In this document: positions 1 to 11,729 of the stretch, one piece after another
How positions within the stretch are numbered: position 1 is the stretch's first letter
Layout of the letters: each line of letters begins with the position of its first letter
Virus record (IMG/VR): IMGVR_UViG_3300021475_000051
Location: 1 to 26,334 of that record
Strand: one strand, 5' to 3'
DNA from: a virus
DNA: 26,334 bases
Translations under genes and position numbers: made by a program
The notes under the pieces: model-generated
The model's input: only the letters and a program-made list of their open reading frames with translations
What the model was told of the DNA's origin: nothing
Database searches by the model: none

Positions 1-54
1 GATCCTCACGGCCACGGCCCGGAGCTGCTGCGCGTACTGCCTCACGGTGGTCAC
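1..54 (-). CDS. 5' end of a further late gene (partial)
   Basis: Only the first 18 codons lie in the window. A GTG at 54-52 overlaps the TGA of the preceding tail gene (GTGA), the coupling seen at many junctions here; a second in-frame GTG at 45-43 is an alternative start. The visible residues (MTTVRQYAQQLRAVAVRI) look like the start of an amphipathic helix. No function can be assigned. It follows two short tail proteins, so another tail or accessory gene is likely. Confidence 0.45.
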   Translation of the reverse strand, partial: MTTVRQYAQQLRAVAVRI

Positions 55-581
55 AGCGGCAGTACCGTCAGGCTGCGGTCCACGAACGTGCCGGTGCCGG
101 ACAGGACCCGGTACTTCGCCGTGAACGTGTTGGACCCCGGGGTGAGGCCGGTCACCAGGAACAGTCCGGACACCCGCCCCCCGTTCGTGCCGAAGGGGCC
201 GCCCACCGCGTGGGCGTCGGTCGCCGCGATGGAGCTGGACCCGCTCACCGCCACACCCATGACGGAGAACCCGGTGCCCGAATTGGCCATGGCGCTGTAC
301 GGGGCGATCAGCGCCTGTGTCCCGGTGACCGTGGCCACCGCCGGTCCCGACGTGGCCAGGTCCGTGTAGGACGTGCTGGTGGTCGTCTCGGACGTGGCCA
401 CGCTCGCGGACGTGATGGTCCGCGCGGCCAGGGCGTTGGCGGCCGTGGAGATGAACCACTGACCGGCGGCGGACGCCTTCGCGGGGGCCGTCTCATTGAA
501 CAGGTCCCGTACGTACTGATTGAACTGGGCGGCGGTGAAGACGTTTCCCGCGACCGCTGTCATGGGAGTGGACCAGGCCAT
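51..581 (-). CDS. Short minor tail / virion surface protein, copy 2 of a tandem pair
   Basis: This 176-aa protein is a paralogue of the gene just upstream. Both begin with MxWxxPMTAVAGxV, continue with a helical stretch (AAQ-N-VRD...ETAPAxAS), have a Ser/Thr-rich middle (SETTTSTxYTDLAT), and end with a conserved segment (GLTPGSNTFTAKYR, then SGTGTF). The second half looks like a beta-sandwich. I recognise the family as small proteins common downstream of tail-tip genes in Streptomyces phages; the exact role (fibre or adhesin subunit) is inferred. The ATG at 581 is preceded by a GAGAGGGG ribosome site, and the gap to the previous stop is 12 nt. Confidence 0.75.
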   Translation of the reverse strand: MAWSTPMTAVAGNVFTAAQFNQYVRDLFNETAPAKASAAGQWFISTAANALAARTITSASVATSETTTSTSYTDLATSGPAVATVTGTQALIAPYSAMANSGTGFSVMGVAVSGSSSIAATDAHAVGGPFGTNGGRVSGLFLVTGLTPGSNTFTAKYRVLSGTGTFVDRSLTVLPL

Positions 582-4617: not shown

Positions 4618-7600
4618 TCACGGCCCCGTGGGGATGATGCCGCGCAACCGGTTCTCCCGCTTGGCCTGCTGGAGGGAGGCGACCAGCCAGTTCATCATGT
4701 CCCGCTGGCTGCCGATCACGCCCTGGTTCACCACCGTCAGATTGATCGTGACCCCCAACTGGTCCTTCGGCCCCAGGACCCGCTCCGGTCGCCCGGTCCG
4801 GTTGATGGCCAGGGTGGCCCCGGGCATGAGCAGGCCGCCGGAGTCGTACCCCATCGGGGGCAGGCTGGCGTTCGCCTGCTGCACCCGGGTGATGTTGCCG
4901 TACCGGGAGACGATGTAGCGAATGGCGGCGGCCACGTTGGCGACCGGGTTGAGGATGCCGAGCGACCGCAGCCCGGCGGGTACGTAATGGTCGAACGTCC
5001 CCGGGATCGTCTGCGCGAGCCCCTGGGACGGGTGGCCCAGCTGGGCGTTGATGTCCGTGCGGTTGACCGCCGACGCGTTCCACCCGGACTCGCGGGTGAT
5101 GAGCGTGTTCATCCCGGAGTACCACTGACCGGCCGTCCCGGGCGGAGGGACGTGGGCGGCGGCCATGGCCGACTTGATCACGGCCAGGTGCTGCCCGGTC
5201 GGGATGACCCCACCCATGGACACCATGGCCGCGTTGAACGCCTTCGCGTACGCGGACGTGATCGACTTGACCACGGGGGTCACGTTGTCCAGCACGGACC
5301 CGCGCATGCCCGCCTGCACCCCGGCGTCGGTCGGCAGGGTGTACGACACGGCCAGCCCATGGCGGCCGGTGACCGGGCCGCCCGTGGCGAACCCGGCCGC
5401 CTTGAGCACCTGCTTGCGCAGTCGTGCCACGGCGTAGTGGCCTCCCGCCGCGCGTACCTCCTTCGCCGTCCACACGTGCTCGTTGTCGGACAGCTTGGCG
5501 TCGATGTCGTCGCTGGTCTCCGTGCCCGGCCCCCGCACGGGTCCGCCGCCCGCGTACGTGAAACCGGTCGTGGACGTATAGGTGTGACCGCTGATCTTTC
5601 CTTCCGGCACCCCGTTGAAACTCACGGTGACCGGGACGGTCTTCGCCTTGATTCCACCCAGGGATTTGTTCACGGAATCGGCGAATGAATCGAACGCCTT
5701 ACTGGCCGTCCTGAGTTTCGGGCCGAGTCCGGGGATCCACCCGAACATGGCGGTGGCCCCGTGCAGGATGTCCCCGGCCATCTTGAGGAAGCCCTGGACG
5801 ATAAACCGTATGGCAGGCTGAATCCCGTTGGTCCACAGCCACATGAACGCCGTGGCCAGGGGGTGGATAACCCACTTGTCCAGGAAGTTCCACGTGTCCA
5901 CGGCGGCTGTCTGGATCTCGGCCCAGGCCTGTTTCCAGTGCAGTGCCAGATAAGCGAGCGGTGCCAGCGGGCCGAGAATGAGCAGGGCGAACTGGCCCAG
6001 CCCGTGAGTGAGGAATCCGTACACCTCGTCCCATATATTCTTGACGAATCCCCACGTGGCTTTCCACGCGGTCTGGAACCAGGTCGTCTTCGTGGCGATG
6101 AGGACGATGGCCGCCACCAGGGCGACTATCCCGATCACTACCCACGTGATCGGGGAGGCGAGCAGCGCCGTGGTCATGGCCCAGGTGGCGGCGATGGCCG
6201 GGCCCAGGGCGGCGGTCCACAGCCAGGTCGCGGCCGTCACTACGCCGGTCGCCACGGCGCTGGCTCCCAGCACCACGTTGCGGGCGATCATGGACGCGGT
6301 GCTGCTGACCAGGCTCACGACCGACGTGACCAGGGACGTGTTCCACAGCCAGGTGGCCGCCGTGGTGGTGGCGGTCCACAGTGCCTGGAGCCGGAGCTGG
6401 ACCCAGACCAGCGCCATCTGCGCCCGCAGCAGCACCATCTGTACCCGGCTCGCGCCGTTGGCCGTGGAGAACAGCCACGTGGCGGCGGCGGCGGCCCCCG
6501 TGTAGATCGCGTACAGCTTCATGGCCAGGTTCACGGCCACGATGGCGTTCACCACCTGGTTCAGCACCGGGACCGGGAGCGCGGCCAGGATCCTGGCCAG
6601 GGTCTCCGCCACCTTGAGGCCGATCCCGGTCAGCGGGCCCAGGCCACCGCCCACGTGGGTCAGCGCGGTGGCGATCTGCTCGAACGCGGCCCCCACCTTG
6701 GGGCCGTCCGCCTTCGCGGTGGCGAAGAACTTCTGGACCCCGGAGTCACTGCCCGCCGTCGCCCCCCACTCCGCGAACTTCGCCGTGAGCTTCGTCAGGC
6801 CGCCGGTCACCCCGGAGGCCATGGGCACGAAGGCGTCCAGGATCCCCGCGAAGCCGATGGCCAGGTTGCGGCCGATGTTGAGGAAGTCGGACAGCGCCCC
6901 GCCCGCGAGGCCGGAGATGTCCTTGCCGAACTTGGAGAAGACCTGGCCCCCGGTGCCGGCCCCGATGTTCTCCACGAAGGACTGGATCACCCCGGAGGCC
7001 TCTTTCACCACCGGGGTCAGCTTCGGCAGGAGACCCTGGAGCTTCTCGATACCGATGGTGAAGACCGGCATCGTGCTGCCCGACAGGGAGTCGGACCATT
7101 TCTTGAACGCGTCCGTGAGGCCGGAGTAGGCCACGGCTGTGGCACGGGTCGCCGGGGGCAGCCCTGCCAGCGTCTGGTTGTACGCGGCCTGGGCGTCCTT
7201 GACCTTGTCCTGGGCTGCCTTCTGGTCGGCCAGCGCCTTGACGTACGCCTTACCCCCGGTGGTCGCCAGGGACTGGGCCTTGGCCGTCGCCTCCGTCGCC
7301 TCCTTCTGGGCCGCGCTGTACCCCTTGGCCCCGGTGGAGGCCAGCGTCTGGGCCTTCTGGTGCGCGTCCGATGCCTGCTTGAGAGCGTCCTCATAGGCCA
7401 CGCCGCTCTTCGTCGCCTGCTTCTTGGCGTCGGCGGCGGCCAGGTCCGCCTTCGCCTGGGCTGTGGTGATCGCGGCGTACTGCTTGGAGGCGTCGGAGAT
7501 CGCGGCGAACTGTGGCTTCACGGCGGCGGCGAAAGCCCCGGCCGCCGCGCCGGCCCCGATGAAGCTGGTGGCGATCGCGCCCACGCCCGCGACCACGGGG

Positions 7601-7740: not shown

Positions 7741-8426
7741 TCAGCGCTCCAGGCCGGGCGCGTACTGGGCCAGGAAGGCCTGGGACGCCTCTTCGTCGCT
7801 GACCCACCACAGCGGGGCGTCGGGGTCGCGGTCGTCCGGGACAGGGCTGCTGGAGGCGTTCACCGGCGTGCGCCACATGCTGACCCCCAGCTCGTTGTTG
7901 AACATCGCGAACACCTGCTCCGGGGTGGTGCCCTCCCGCTGGTAGTCCAGCGAGTCGAGCATCTCCGCGTAGACCACGTTCAGGAACCGGTCGAAGCGGA
8001 GGCTCCCGAGATCGACACCTCGCCCGATGTACTGCCCGTCCAGGCGATGCCAGTTCCCGGGCTGTCCGGCCCAGGCGCAGAGCTGTCGGACGGCATCGTA
8101 GGGCGCAGCCCGAAAGCCTCCAGCAGGTAGCTGATCGCGCCCTCCAGCTGGTCGAACTCGATCATGTCCGCCGGGTCGTGGGAGGACGTCATCTCGTTCA
8201 GCACCCGGTACGACTCCGGCTCCAGGAGCTCGCTCAGGATCTCCTTGAACGCCCCGATCTGCTGGTCCACGGGGGTGCCCGCCTCCATGGAGCCGAACCG
8301 GATGGTGAAGTCCATCACGGTGTCCGCCGGGAGGCCGACCTGACCGGTGTAGACCCTCGTCCCAATCCGGAACCGAGGTGCCGCGCCGCGCTTCTTCGAT
8401 AGATCCTTGATCTCTTCCTCAGCCAT
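7741..8426 (-). CDS. Tail assembly chaperone, long form made by -1 frameshift
   Basis: This is the predicted fusion product: codons from 8426 to 8055 in the first frame, then re-reading of base 8055 and continuation in the -1 frame to the TGA at 7743-7741, giving 228 aa. The second frame is open and protein-like right from the slip point (NWHRLDGQYIGRGVDLGSLR, then FLNVVYAEMLDSLDYQREG), before any good start codon, which supports frameshifting over a separate gene. In siphophages the two forms bind the tape measure and recruit tail tube protein. Position directly before the tape measure and the canonical CCCGGGA heptamer agree. An internal GTG near 7977 could only make a 78-aa fragment. Confidence 0.85.
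7980..8426 (-). CDS. Tail assembly chaperone, short (unshifted) form
   Basis: A 148-aa protein with an acidic/basic N-terminus (MAEEEIKDLSKKRG), a compact middle (VMDFTIRFGS, then GAFKEILSELLEPESYRVL), and a helical part (FDQLEGAISYLLEAFG) before a Ser/Gly/Pro-rich tail. The tail is the zero-frame reading past the slip site and is probably unstructured. I chose the ATG at 8426; a GTG two codons upstream (8432) is possible. Gene order (gp10-like gene before, tape measure after) and the slippery site make this the G-type chaperone of siphophage tails. It assists assembly and is normally absent from the virion. Confidence 0.88.
   Translation of the reverse strand: MAEEEIKDLSKKRGAAPRFRIGTRVYTGQVGLPADTVMDFTIRFGSMEAGTPVDQQIGAFKEILSELLEPESYRVLNEMTSSHDPADMIEFDQLEGAISYLLEAFGLRPTMPSDSSAPGPDSPGTGIAWTGSTSGEVSISGASASTGS
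8055..8061 (-). promoter_or_regulatory. -1 programmed frameshift site CCCGGGA
   Basis: The minus strand reads AGC CCG GGA ACT in the first frame, so C CCG GGA matches the X XXY YYZ rule exactly. Slipping back one base gives CCC GGG AAC and enters the open second frame. The site falls at codons 123-124 of the short form. I did not find a convincing downstream stem or pseudoknot by eye. Confidence 0.85.
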
Positions 8427-8442
8427 GGGCACAGCCTAGGAC

Positions 8443-8459
8443 GGATCTTTTCAAGATCC
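8443..8459 (-). other. Short hairpin over the gp10-like stop, before the chaperone
   Basis: A perfect 7-bp stem (GGATCTT / AAGATCC) with a 3-nt loop covers the stop of the gp10-like gene and lies 16 nt before the chaperone ATG. It could be a weak terminator or shape initiation of the chaperone; it is too short to be sure. Confidence 0.4.
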
Positions 8460-8870
8460 TCCCGCGAGGTTCCCGCCCGCGCGCAGGGCCCGCGTCATGA
8501 AATCGTTCGGCCGGTTTCCGGGGTGGTGTACGACCCGGGCGTAGACGTACTTCCTGCCGCCCTTCGGACGGAATCGCAGCCGCCCGTTCGGTCGCTTCGG
8601 GAAGATCAGGTGCGGCCGGGTGCCCTGGGTCACGTACATGGTCGCCGGGTGCGAGCACTGGATCTCGACCTGGTCGGAGTCGGTCCCGTTGGTGATCGTG
8701 ACCGATGTGATCTTCCGCTTCATGGAGCCCGGCGCGAGCTGGCGGGCCCGGGTCATGATCAGCCGCCCGCGCCGCTCCAGGTCGTTGGTGGTCGGCGACC
8801 CGCGCCCACGGAACAGCCGCCGGACGGCCACCCCGTCCAGCTTGATCGAGACCGTTACCTTCTCCGCCAT
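8451..8870 (-). CDS. HK97 gp10-like neck / tail completion protein
   Basis: A 139-aa basic protein of the HK97 gp10 type. The family pattern is visible: an N-terminal helix bearing RRGRLIMTRARQLAPG, a central strand region (SHPATMYVTQGTRPH), and the C-terminal VVHHPGNRP followed by FMTRALR. Such proteins act at the head-tail joint or tail terminator. The ATG at 8870 has GGAG about 7 nt upstream. Unlike most neighbours it does not overlap the upstream gene: a 59-bp AT-rich gap with a dyad precedes it. The stop lies within a small hairpin ahead of the chaperone. Confidence 0.8.
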   Translation of the reverse strand: MAEKVTVSIKLDGVAVRRLFRGRGSPTTNDLERRGRLIMTRARQLAPGSMKRKITSVTITNGTDSDQVEIQCSHPATMYVTQGTRPHLIFPKRPNGRLRFRPKGGRKYVYARVVHHPGNRPNDFMTRALRAGGNLAGGS

Positions 8871-8884
8871 CAAGATCTCCGAGA

Positions 8885-8920
8885 CTCGAGTATTAGTAAG
8901 TATACGCACGAATACTCGAG
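8885..8920. promoter_or_regulatory. AT-rich dyad before the gp10-like gene
   Basis: CTCGAGTATT (8885-8894) and AATACTCGAG (8911-8920) form a perfect 10-bp inverted repeat around a 16-nt centre. The minus strand carries TATACT inside the dyad (8898-8903), with smaller nested AGTAT/ATACT and GTAT/ATAC repeats. It lies in the only AT-rich gap of the neck region. It may be an operator overlapping a -10 element or a transcript stem-loop; no good -35 is visible. Confidence 0.5.
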
Positions 8921-8929
8921 CATTTTCGA

Positions 8930-9451
8930 TCACCCGCGCGTCAGCGACACCAGCACGTGGAGCTCCGACCCGACGCACGCGCCGTCCGGCCCGACCGCCG
9001 TCAGCTCCTGCACCAGGTAGTCCAGGATCTCCCCGGCCCCGTCGTCCTTCATCGTGCACAGCTCCCGCTCCACGGACGCCACCAGGTTGTACGCGTCCTG
9101 GGCCCACTGCTGCGCGTCCGCGTCCAGCGCGTCCTGGCCGGGGGCGGCCTCCGTCTGCGGGTTCTCCGGCTGGGTGGCGCACCGCAGCACCTGGAGGACG
9201 ATCTCCGCCACGTCCAGGGACGGGGAACAGCCCGCGCCCACCGGGGCCTCCACCGGGGCGGGGAACTCCTCCGAGGGATAGGTGCGCAGCACGTTGACGT
9301 ACAGCGCCCCGCACTGGCAGTCGTCCCACGCGGCCTGGTTCCCGGCCACCACCCCGTACCGGCACACCTGCGGCACCAGCGCCGTGGCCGCCGCGTCGCG
9401 CAAGGCGGCGGCCACGGCGTACCACTTGAGCGGGCCCGCGAGCATGGTCAC
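8930..9451 (-). CDS. Head-tail connector (stopper-type) protein, tentative
   Basis: A 173-aa acidic protein with several cysteines. The segment VCRYGVVAGNQAAWDDCQCG, then NVLRTYPSEEFP, and the later VLQVLRCATQPENPQ resemble a conserved actinophage family in the neck module, usually placed between the adaptor and the gp10-like gene. The C-terminus (GEILDYLVQELTAVGPDGAC, then SELHVLVSLTRG) looks like a beta strand cap. A GTG at 9451 overlaps the upstream TGA (GTGA); an ATG two codons later is the alternative. A stopper role is inferred from order. Following the stop is the AT-rich dyad region. Confidence 0.7.
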   Translation of the reverse strand: MTMLAGPLKWYAVAAALRDAAATALVPQVCRYGVVAGNQAAWDDCQCGALYVNVLRTYPSEEFPAPVEAPVGAGCSPSLDVAEIVLQVLRCATQPENPQTEAAPGQDALDADAQQWAQDAYNLVASVERELCTMKDDGAGEILDYLVQELTAVGPDGACVGSELHVLVSLTRG

Positions 9452-9846
9452 CCCGCCGCCTCGTTCCCAGCCTGGGCCCACAGCCGCTGGAGCGTGGCCG
9501 CGTCCAGCCCCTTGCACGCCTGCGGCTCCGTGCCCGGGGAGACCGTGGTGGGGTTGCCCAGCGCCTGCCGCCACTGCTGCACCAGGGCACCCTTGCACGC
9601 GGCCTGATCGGGCCCGGAACTACAGCCGGTGAGCAGGAACCCGCACGCGACCAGGTATGCCAGCGGGACCAGGGTCAGGGCCGCGACCCGGACCGCGTTG
9701 CGCCGTCGCTGGCCGCGCCACACACCGGTCACGTCGTTGACCCCCTTCACCCGCTGCCACGCCCCGTAACCGCCCATGCAGAACAGGGACGCCTCCAGGT
9801 CCCGCTGCTTCCGGGCCCAGCGCCAGCGCTTGAGTGCTGCCTTCAT
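9448..9846 (-). CDS. Predicted small lipoprotein embedded in the neck operon
   Basis: A 132-aa protein. Residues 1-50 are strongly basic (KRWRWARKQR, RGQRRR). Residues about 52-73 are a hydrophobic segment ending in the lipobox LLTGC, with Cys75 as the probable lipidated residue, followed by SSGPDQ. The exported part is about 57 residues with cysteines at 84 and 111 and a conserved-looking ACKGLDAATLQRLW. The ATG overlaps the adaptor TGA (ATGA), so it is coupled to a head gene. A 50-residue cytoplasmic leader is unusual for a lipoprotein. Phage lipoproteins can block superinfection (Llp of T5, Ltp of TP-J34); such a role here is inference. A bitopic membrane protein is the alternative. Confidence 0.7.
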   Translation of the reverse strand: MKAALKRWRWARKQRDLEASLFCMGGYGAWQRVKGVNDVTGVWRGQRRRNAVRVAALTLVPLAYLVACGFLLTGCSSGPDQAACKGALVQQWRQALGNPTTVSPGTEPQACKGLDAATLQRLWAQAGNEAAG

Positions 9847-10640
9847 GATCCTGCCCTCCGTGGCGGGACGCGGTCCACGGCGTAGACCCGGGACCGTTGC
9901 TGGAGCCTGTTCGGGTTGACGGCCGCCAGCCACAGGTCCACCAGGTAGACCCCGGTGCGCCCTGCCTCCACGGCCGCGTTGATGTCCGGGAACGTGATCG
10001 TGACGCCCTGCCGGATCAGGGACTGAAGCTGCATGGGCAGGCGGCAGTCCGCTCCGTTGCGGGCCCGCAGCACCTGGCACGCCAGCTCTCCCACCACGCC
10101 GGCCGCCTCGCTGGGAACGTCCAGCCCGTACGCGGCGGTGACAGACCACGTGCCCTGCTCCGTGTCGGCCAGCCGCAGGTTGTTGCAGCGTGGCCACCGG
10201 TACCCGTCCGTGCGCACCAGCAACCGGTTGTCGTCCAGCCGGTAGGCAGACGGGTCCAGCACCACCCCGTTGACCTTCACCTGGGTCACGGCGTTGCACA
10301 GCGACGGGAGCAGCACCGTGGGCACCTCCCCGCAGGAGCAGCCGCCGGAGCACTGCCCGCACTCGGAGGAGAACCAGTACGACGCGTCCCAGTTGGACGG
10401 GCTGCCGCCCCACTCCGACCACGGGAACAGCAGCGGGTGCGACTGAGGCCACGGCTGGTAGCAGCTGGGGCGGCACGGGCGCAGCGTGGTGGAGCAGGTC
10501 CCGTACCGGCGGCCGGACAATGCCCACAGCACCTTCGTGGCCATGGACAGCGCCATGCCCGTGGCCTCCTGGGAGTACGTGGACACGTCGCACGTCCAGC
10601 TCACCGGCCAGTCGTCGCACGGTCCGTCACTGAACGTCAT
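9843..10640 (-). CDS. Head-to-tail adaptor protein
   Basis: A 265-aa protein of the actinophage adaptor type. The start (TFSDGPCDDWPVSW) is followed by a helical part (EATGMALSMATKVLWALSGR RYG), a Cys-rich insertion with about a dozen cysteines, a strand region (VTQVKVNGVVLDPSAYRLDD), and a C-terminal helical part containing SEAAGVVGELACQVLRARNG. The Cys-rich stretch (about residues 47-100, including SSECGQCSGGCSCG) could bind metal. The ATG at 10640 overlaps the previous TGA. The protein would dock on the portal after packaging. The family assignment rests on the helix-strand-helix layout and position. Confidence 0.8.
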   Translation of the reverse strand: MTFSDGPCDDWPVSWTCDVSTYSQEATGMALSMATKVLWALSGRRYGTCSTTLRPCRPSCYQPWPQSHPLLFPWSEWGGSPSNWDASYWFSSECGQCSGGCSCGEVPTVLLPSLCNAVTQVKVNGVVLDPSAYRLDDNRLLVRTDGYRWPRCNNLRLADTEQGTWSVTAAYGLDVPSEAAGVVGELACQVLRARNGADCRLPMQLQSLIRQGVTITFPDINAAVEAGRTGVYLVDLWLAAVNPNRLQQRSRVYAVDRVPPRRAGS

Positions 10641-10981
10641 ACCGGCGGCACCTCTCCCACGGGCTCTCGGACCGTGAACGCGATCCGGATGCTGGCCAGG
10701 CGGACGGCACCGTTCCCGGCCCAGAACTCCGCCGTGTACGGGCCCGGCTCCGGCCACTCGCTCCCGGTCCACGGGTACGACACGTAGCCGTCCGTGCCGA
10801 CCAGGACGGACGCGGTGTACGTGGTGGCCACACCGGCCGGGGTACGGACCACGAAGGCCGCCGTGTACCCGGACAGGTCGATCCCGGTCCCGTTGGCGTC
10901 CTGGAACTGGTACGTGAGCGGAGGCTGTTTCTCCCCGCGCACGTACTGCCCGGCGTTCACGGTGGGCTGTGAGATCCGCAC
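10637..10981 (-). CDS. Ig-like / BppU N-terminal-like structural protein
   Basis: A 114-aa beta-rich protein. It contains VRGEKQPPLTYQFQDANGTG, DLSGYTAAFVVRTPAG and a closing strand set (ASIRIAFTVREP). This layout resembles the N-terminal domain of baseplate upper proteins (BppU) and small Ig-like phage proteins. I chose the GTG at 10981 because GAGGGAGG lies just upstream in the 13-nt gap; the longer open frame reads back into the previous gene and is not plausible. Location between capsid and neck genes suggests a virion decoration or neck-whisker part; this is inference. Confidence 0.7.
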   Translation of the reverse strand: MRISQPTVNAGQYVRGEKQPPLTYQFQDANGTGIDLSGYTAAFVVRTPAGVATTYTASVLVGTDGYVSYPWTGSEWPEPGPYTAEFWAGNGAVRLASIRIAFTVREPVGEVPPV

Positions 10982-10994
10982 GCTGCCTCCCTCG

Positions 10995-11729
10995 TCAGGC
11001 CGGGCCGAACGGTTCGCGCCCGGACAGCGACGTCCCCGGTTCCCGGCCACCGACCAGGGTCTGGTACGGCGGTGCGGGAACGGGCGAGGACACGCCGTAC
11101 GCGGCCCCGGAACCGTCTGCGGCCCCGGCGGTCACCACGATAGCCGCGCGCGCCGCGTAGGCCGTCCCGGTGCCGCTGGCGAGGCCCGCGTGCGCCACCG
11201 CGTCCTGGCCCGGGTCGGAGACCTGGACGTCCACCCAGTAGTTCGCCCCGGTGGTCAGCTCCGGGTACGTGGGCGTGGAGCTGATCACGTACCCGACCTG
11301 GATCCCGCCCGTGGCGTTCACGGTGGACGGGGCGGTCAACGGCCCGTCCACCACGTCCGCCGGGTAGCCGTCCGGGGTGGCGGAGTACCAGTTGTGCCCG
11401 CTGGACAGGTCCGTGATCGACGCCCGGTAGCGCTGGTTCGGGGTCAGCGGGACGGGCGGGCTAAGGGCGGTGAAGTTCCACTGGCCCTGGGTCAGGGTCC
11501 CGGTGTTGACCTGGGTGCCTGGAACGGCGGTGCCGGTCGTCCCGGTGGCCACCTGCCAGCACTGGTGCGTCTTGACGCTGGTGTCGGCCCCCGGCGCGCA
11601 CCACCACCAGAAACCGGTCAGGTTGGCGTCCGCCGTGACGTAGAACTCCACGCCCATGGTGTAGGACGTGGTGTCGGACGCGGGGGAGGACGGCCCGTTG
11701 GTCGCCGGAAAGATCCGGTAGTCGGCCAC
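10995..11729 (-). CDS. DUF4082-like beta-sandwich virion protein
   Basis: A 244-aa protein. The N-terminal 150 residues match the style of DUF4082-type beta-sandwich domains: DYRIFPATNGPSSPASDTTS, then GVEFYVTADANLTGFWWWCA, GQWNFTALSPPVPLTPNQRY. After about residue 185 the chain is low-complexity Ala/Gly/Pro and may be a flexible tail. GTG start 9 nt after the previous TAG with a GGGGG ribosome site. Such domains occur in surface-exposed phage and bacterial proteins. Capsid or neck surface adhesion is a reasonable inference, unproven. Confidence 0.7.
   Translation of the reverse strand: MADYRIFPATNGPSSPASDTTSYTMGVEFYVTADANLTGFWWWCAPGADTSVKTHQCWQVATGTTGTAVPGTQVNTGTLTQGQWNFTALSPPVPLTPNQRYRASITDLSSGHNWYSATPDGYPADVVDGPLTAPSTVNATGGIQVGYVISSTPTYPELTTGANYWVDVQVSDPGQDAVAHAGLASGTGTAYAARAAIVVTAGAADGSGAAYGVSSPVPAPPYQTLVGGREPGTSLSGREPFGPA

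What the first reader, a model, noticed from the sequence alone, without database searches (positions are those of the whole stretch)
9448..9846. Lipoprotein-like gene inserted among neck genes
A basic N-terminus, a membrane segment and an LLTGC lipobox mark this product as a likely lipoprotein, yet it is translationally coupled to head-tail joining genes. Known phage lipoproteins protect infected cells or receptors from other phages. The long cytoplasmic leader is atypical and may reflect a new type.
Basis: partly seen in the sequence, partly recalled or inferred. Interest (0 to 1): 0.52.

Follow-up and report, generated by a model that had tools for sequence, protein, structure and literature searches.

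The report
Streptomyces-type lipoprotein inserted in phage neck
A phage carries, squeezed between two of its particle-assembly genes, one extra gene for a small membrane-anchored protein of an undescribed family found in Streptomyces bacteria and their resident phages, probably cargo that alters the infected cell's surface rather than a part of the phage particle.

Summary
The gene (minus strand 9846..9448, 132 aa) has a basic leader, a hydrophobic segment and an LLTGC lipobox (Cys75), and overlaps the head-tail adaptor gene (ATGA) and the next gene (GTGA). The closest related phage contig, L006, lacks exactly this gene (395 bp), and none of 17 adaptor loci has a gene there. The leader matched nothing. 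The ectodomain (residues 80-124) belongs to a family absent from Pfam, NCBIfam and PADLOC and essentially from PHROGs: a profile built without the window protein gives it 40.5 bits, against 12.5 for the best of 2000 shuffles. The family is small lipoproteins with a Cys-paired helical hairpin, found here almost only in Streptomyces chromosomes, plasmids and prophages of an unrelated virion type, just before the packaging genes. The lipobox Cys is kept in 24 of 25 relatives; none is a neck protein. I read it as horizontally acquired, moron-like cargo, made late and anchored outside the host membrane. Blocking a second phage (Ltp-like) or protecting progeny (Llp-like) is the likeliest role, inferred only. 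The long leader, with a possible second start, is the unusual part.

The parts
9448..9846 (-). lipoprotein-like gene, 132 aa
   Evidence: ORF, coding-type base composition, Shine-Dalgarno-like site; absent from the close relative L006
9854..9859 (-). GGAGGG, probable ribosome-binding site of the inserted gene; the equivalent site precedes the phrog_810 gene in L006
9697..9846 (-). basic leader, residues 1-50, no relatives found
   Evidence: net +10, pI 11.7; tblastn of residues 1-71 in named phages empty
9730..9732 (-). possible internal start GTG39 after AAGGGGGT, which would give an ordinary lipoprotein signal peptide
   Evidence: pattern only
9622..9687 (-). hydrophobic segment and lipobox LLTGC ending at Cys75
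9475..9609 (-). ectodomain, residues 80-124, Cys-paired helical hairpin (Cys84, Cys111)
   Evidence: profile match 40.5 bits; helices 81-97 and 116-131 in the model
9843..10640 (-). upstream neighbour, head-tail adaptor
   Evidence: phrog_783, E 4e-52
8930..9451 (-). downstream neighbour, phrog_810 protein of unknown function

Best explanation
The gene is moron-like cargo: one complete coding unit inserted between the adaptor gene and the phrog_810 gene of an actinophage, probably of Streptomyces. Shown by sequence: a clean insertion, real coding, and an ectodomain of a Streptomyces lipoprotein family that recurs in unrelated temperate Streptomyces phages and plasmids. Inferred: it is co-translated with the late structural operon, exported, lipid-modified at Cys75 and held on the outer face of the host cytoplasmic membrane, with the Cys84-Cys111 hairpin facing the wall. 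Least certain: late in infection it works against other phages, either by hindering DNA entry at the membrane as Ltp does, or by masking a receptor so that released progeny are not trapped, as proposed for T5 Llp. It is not a virion neck part.
For: Exact 395-bp difference from L006; none of 17 adaptor loci has a gene there. Ectodomain profile made without it: 40.5 bits against 12.5 for the best of 2000 shuffles; independent hits with the protein alone in Streptomyces genomes, best E 1.7e-9. Lipobox Cys in 24 of 25 relatives. Relatives lie in nine phage loci of another capsid type and on plasmids, as expected of mobile cargo. No promoter-like site of its own.
Against: No functional data. It is expressed, if at all, with late genes, so a lysogen-protection role is doubtful here; the nearest relative shows neither PF00589 nor PF00239 (the record may be incomplete). 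No sequence match to Ltp or to any PADLOC model. The ectodomain is net neutral, unlike acidic Ltp. Some relatives sit beside ordinary chromosomal genes, so the ancestral role may be cellular. From ATG1 the n-region is too long for the usual lipoprotein patterns.
Confidence: 0.4

Rival explanations
1. It is a membrane protein that tunes lysis or envelope integrity at the end of infection, the basic leader acting in the cytoplasm and a possible internal start giving a short lipidated form.
For: Membrane segment, late operon, possible second start at GTG39; a related prophage has annotated holin and membrane-protein genes between capsid and tail genes.
Against: It lies far from any recognised lysis gene in the window; the close relative does without it at this site; relatives lie on plasmids and chromosomes.
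Confidence: 0.15
2. It is a host gene carried by chance, with a cellular role (for example at the cell envelope) and no benefit to the phage.
For: Chromosomal relatives next to alkyl sulfatase and phospholipase A2 genes; only one phage has it at this site.
Against: It keeps an intact frame, coding-type composition and exact overlaps; the family recurs at one fixed place in nine phage loci.
Confidence: 0.2
3. It is a virion or assembly protein of the neck.
For: Position between two neck-region genes with overlapping frames.
Against: Absent from the closest relative and from all 17 adaptor loci; homologues are lipoproteins; no structural PHROG or Pfam match.
Confidence: 0.04

Closest known systems
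Uncharacterised small Streptomyces lipoproteins (e.g. plasmid proteins WP_263217093.1, WP_331743620.1, WP_328891613.1)
   Same: Lipobox, about 9-13 residues, then a Cys-paired helical hairpin with motif AACK ... PxACxGxD
   Different: They have short signal peptides; the window protein has a 50-residue basic leader
Ltp of Streptococcus thermophilus phage TP-J34 (superinfection exclusion lipoprotein)
   Same: Phage-encoded small lipoprotein with a small helical ectodomain outside the cytoplasmic membrane (passages of PMC3952083)
   Different: No sequence match in Pfam; Ltp lies in the lysogeny module and its repeat region is negatively charged, this one lies in the late operon and is net neutral
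Llp of phage T5
   Same: Lipoprotein cargo of a tailed phage thought to protect the infected cell and its progeny (recalled; PMC9586334 seen only as a search listing)
   Different: Llp sits in an outer membrane and acts on FhuA (recalled); this host is inferred to be Gram-positive. Sequences not compared

Membership tests
Streptomyces Cys-hairpin lipoprotein family (defined here) | Ectodomain profile match with both cysteines at the usual spacing | tested here: met
   40.5 bits; best of 2000 shuffles 12.5, of 2000 Cys-keeping shuffles 7.5; Cys spacing 27 as in most relatives
Streptomyces Cys-hairpin lipoprotein family (defined here) | Lipobox Cys 9-13 residues before the first ectodomain Cys | tested here: met
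   Cys75, spacing 9
Streptomyces Cys-hairpin lipoprotein family (defined here) | Short signal-peptide n-region | tested here: inconclusive
   Not met from ATG1 (n-region about 50 residues); would be met from GTG39
Bacterial lipoproteins | Hydrophobic region followed by a lipobox ending in Cys | tested here: met
   LLTGC, Cys75
Bacterial lipoproteins | Lipid attached to the Cys | not testable with these tools
   needs labelling or mass spectrometry
Ltp superinfection-exclusion family | Sequence match to the Pfam model of Ltp repeats | tested here: not met
   no Pfam family at E<=0.5; relatives likewise give no Ltp hit at E<=1. The Ltp model's presence in Pfam is recalled
Ltp superinfection-exclusion family | Blocks DNA entry through the tape measure protein | not testable with these tools
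   needs phage challenge
Ltp superinfection-exclusion family | Gene in the lysogeny module | tested here: not met
   lies between neck genes
Phage morons | Single gene inserted cleanly between genes that are adjacent in a relative | tested here: met
   395-bp difference from L006
Phage morons | Own promoter and terminator (classical definition, recalled) | tested here: not met
   no promoter-like or terminator-like site in 8400-10900; the scan covers only sigma-70-type patterns

The most novel reading that the evidence does not exclude
An unnamed family of Cys-hairpin lipoproteins is a general surface-exclusion tool of Streptomyces phages and plasmids, passed between unrelated virion lineages. 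This phage has a two-start version of it: a long form with a basic cytoplasmic tail and a short lipidated form, both driven by the late operon and placed so that it takes over the ribosome site of the next neck gene.
Probability: 0.12. Interest if true: 0.68.

Novelty: new variant of a known kind. Interest (0 to 1): 0.42.

Why it matters
If the exclusion reading is right, it gives a defined candidate family for superinfection exclusion in Streptomyces; in the paper searches made here (listings only) no Streptomyces phage lipoprotein of this kind appeared. The fixed place just before the packaging genes in temperate phages, and the separate capture in a neck operon, make it testable with one cloned gene. 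Even without that function, the case shows a whole gene placed between overlapping neck genes while keeping the overlaps and taking over the downstream gene's ribosome site.

Tried and rejected
Full-length searches with the window protein found nothing: named phages at E<=1, IMG/VR, one-genome-per-species contigs. The first link to the family was an E=7 plasmid hit, accepted only after the profile test. With the ectodomain alone at E<=10, four named-phage records matched weakly; the two Gordonia phage Getalong rows were rejected because the protein is no lipoprotein and lacks the motif, the other two (E 6 and 9) were not followed. Matches to about residues 20-93 in long Streptomyces frames were not counted; those reprinted looked like chance or wrong-frame matches. 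Eleven of the 26 genomes match only weakly (E 9.7e-7 or worse); those looked at match mainly the signal peptide, and none is counted as family. The structure model is good only for the ectodomain (mean pLDDT 63.8, leader and membrane segment low) and had no PDB match at E<=0.001. A profile scan of IMG/VR with alignment A3 could not run. The second repeat of longer relatives (L038, L030, L029) scores only 3-5 bits against the profile, so a duplication is suspected, not shown. Lipobox Cys68 was considered and set aside on spacing.

Full report
What is there. The window is an IMG/VR virus record of 26,334 bases, 71% G+C. Its minus strand reads, from packaging to tail: terminase, portal and a large maturation-region protein (these names read by eye), then major head protein (phrog_777), a phrog_779 protein, major tail protein (phrog_792), a variable block, head-tail adaptor (phrog_783), the gene in question, a phrog_810 protein, and further neck and chaperone-like genes up to the tape measure. 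The flagged gene runs from ATG 9846 to the stop at 9448. It has GGAGGG 7 nt before the ATG and coding-type base composition in leader, membrane segment and ectodomain alike, so it is a real gene. Its start overlaps the adaptor stop (ATGA) and its stop overlaps the next gene's GTG (GTGA).

It is an insertion. A scan with the adaptor found 13 IMG/VR loci; the closest, L006, has an 88% identical adaptor and aligns at 77-82% DNA identity over most of 16 kb. In L006 the adaptor runs straight into the phrog_810 gene. Window 9846 and window 9451 both correspond to the same L006 base: a difference of 395 bp, one gene with one overlap. On the two sides, 48 of 60 and 52 of 64 bases are identical. The GGAGGG that serves the phrog_810 start in L006 now precedes the inserted gene. 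In 17 adaptor loci (L002-L018: four named phages and 13 IMG/VR contigs) the next ORF begins at or within a few bases of the adaptor's end; 0 of 17 has a gene between.

What family it is. Full-length searches found nothing. The ectodomain resembled a Streptomyces plasmid protein weakly, which led to a family of small Streptomyces lipoproteins. A profile of 21 ectodomains, made without the window protein and without signal peptides, gives the window ectodomain 40.5 bits (E 1.2e-14 for one comparison, 1.2e-8 for a million); the best of 2000 shuffles reaches 12.5 and of 2000 Cys-keeping shuffles 7.5. Independently, the protein alone found the family in Streptomyces genomes (best E 1.7e-9 per genome, residues 62-126, 295 genomes searched). 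The pattern is AACK, then about 27 residues to PxACxG(L/V/I)D, with two helices each beginning near a Cys. The window protein has Cys84 and Cys111 at the usual spacing. No Pfam or NCBIfam family (E<=0.5 and E<=1) and no PADLOC model was found for it; in PHROGs only weak matches exist, phrog_3641 (0.045) for the window protein and phrog_12816 (1e-5 and 9e-5) for the N-terminal part of two relatives.

Where the family lives. With an alignment model, 26 of 295 Streptomyces genomes matched at E<=1e-4, of which 15 (E<=1.3e-12) show the Cys-pair ectodomain. In a draw of 396 genomes across the phylum, 3 matched, all three of which were also in the Streptomyces draw. First-look candidates were capped, so these are lower bounds. 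Of 16 genome stretches fetched, 5 (L092, L101, L102, L104, L106) carry phage terminase, portal and capsid genes beside it. IMG/VR adds L029, L030, L115 and L116; L114 is the same element as L106. In all nine the lipoprotein gene lies just before the HNH, small-terminase or large-terminase genes. The records of L029 and L030 carry serine integrases. Those phages use another capsid family (phrog_10) than the window phage (phrog_777), so the lipoprotein has moved between unrelated virion types. None of 50,697 named phage records matched the window protein or two relatives used as queries at E<=1 or E<=10. The contig of the nearest relative, L006, lacks the neck insertion but has another small lipoprotein elsewhere whose ectodomain is a weak family match (record E 5.6e-4; 12.0 bits, 0 of 5000 Cys-keeping shuffles reach it).

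How it probably works. The relatives make it likely that the C-terminal domain is an exported, membrane-tethered hairpin: the lipobox Cys is present in 24 of 25 relatives (four of these 24 have relaxed boxes seen by eye, and L075 has an unclear N-terminus), and the exception, L076, keeps a plain membrane segment. Cys75 fits the family spacing, Cys68 does not. From there on it is inference. The gene has no promoter-like site of its own and would be made late, with the neck proteins. A protein that appears late on the outer face of the membrane and is not needed at this site by the close relative is best explained as acting against other phages. Ltp of phage TP-J34, a lipoprotein that stops DNA entry and interacts with the tape measure protein, is the functional model (passages of PMC3952083 and PMC11480721). 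Against a close parallel: Ltp lies in a lysogeny module and its repeats are acidic, whereas the window ectodomain is net neutral. The nearest relative shows neither integrase family, though its record may be incomplete.

The leader. No relative of residues 1-71 was found in named phages. From ATG1 the n-region is far longer than usual; from GTG39, preceded by AAGGGGGT, the protein would have a normal lipoprotein signal. Both may be made. That is the most unusual feature and it is untested.

Host. Streptomyces is inferred from the family's distribution; nothing in the record names the host.

Verdict. The gene is a horizontally moved member of an unnamed Streptomyces lipoprotein family with an atypical N-terminus.

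Noticed in passing
L109 1348-1704 (contig of L006, about 6249-6605): The nearest relative phage carries another small lipoprotein with a weak family match, on the strand opposite to the tail genes and after a WhiB-like ORF (by eye).
   Followed up: partly
L007 9815-10306: A different 163-aa lipoprotein-like ORF lies in the same neck region of another adaptor-bearing contig, after the neck ORF 9376-9807; no family match.
   Followed up: partly
L016 9811-10077: A small regulator-like ORF (88 aa, by eye) is inserted in the neck region of a related phage.
   Followed up: no
window 10995-11729: A DUF4082 protein (E 1e-14) sits between major tail protein and adaptor; most of this stretch has no DNA match in L006, so it is a second variable spot.
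   Followed up: no
L093, L094, L096, L097: Chromosomal family members lie beside a divergent alkyl sulfatase gene and a co-directional secreted phospholipase A2 gene in 4 of 4 such loci, which may hint at the ancestral role.
   Followed up: partly
L106 9411-9758: A prophage family member without lipobox: a cytoplasmic leader and a plain membrane segment before the same ectodomain.
   Followed up: partly
window 51-581 and 594-1121: Two neighbouring paralogous proteins of about 176 aa with the same beginning, probably tail-fibre type (by eye).
   Followed up: no
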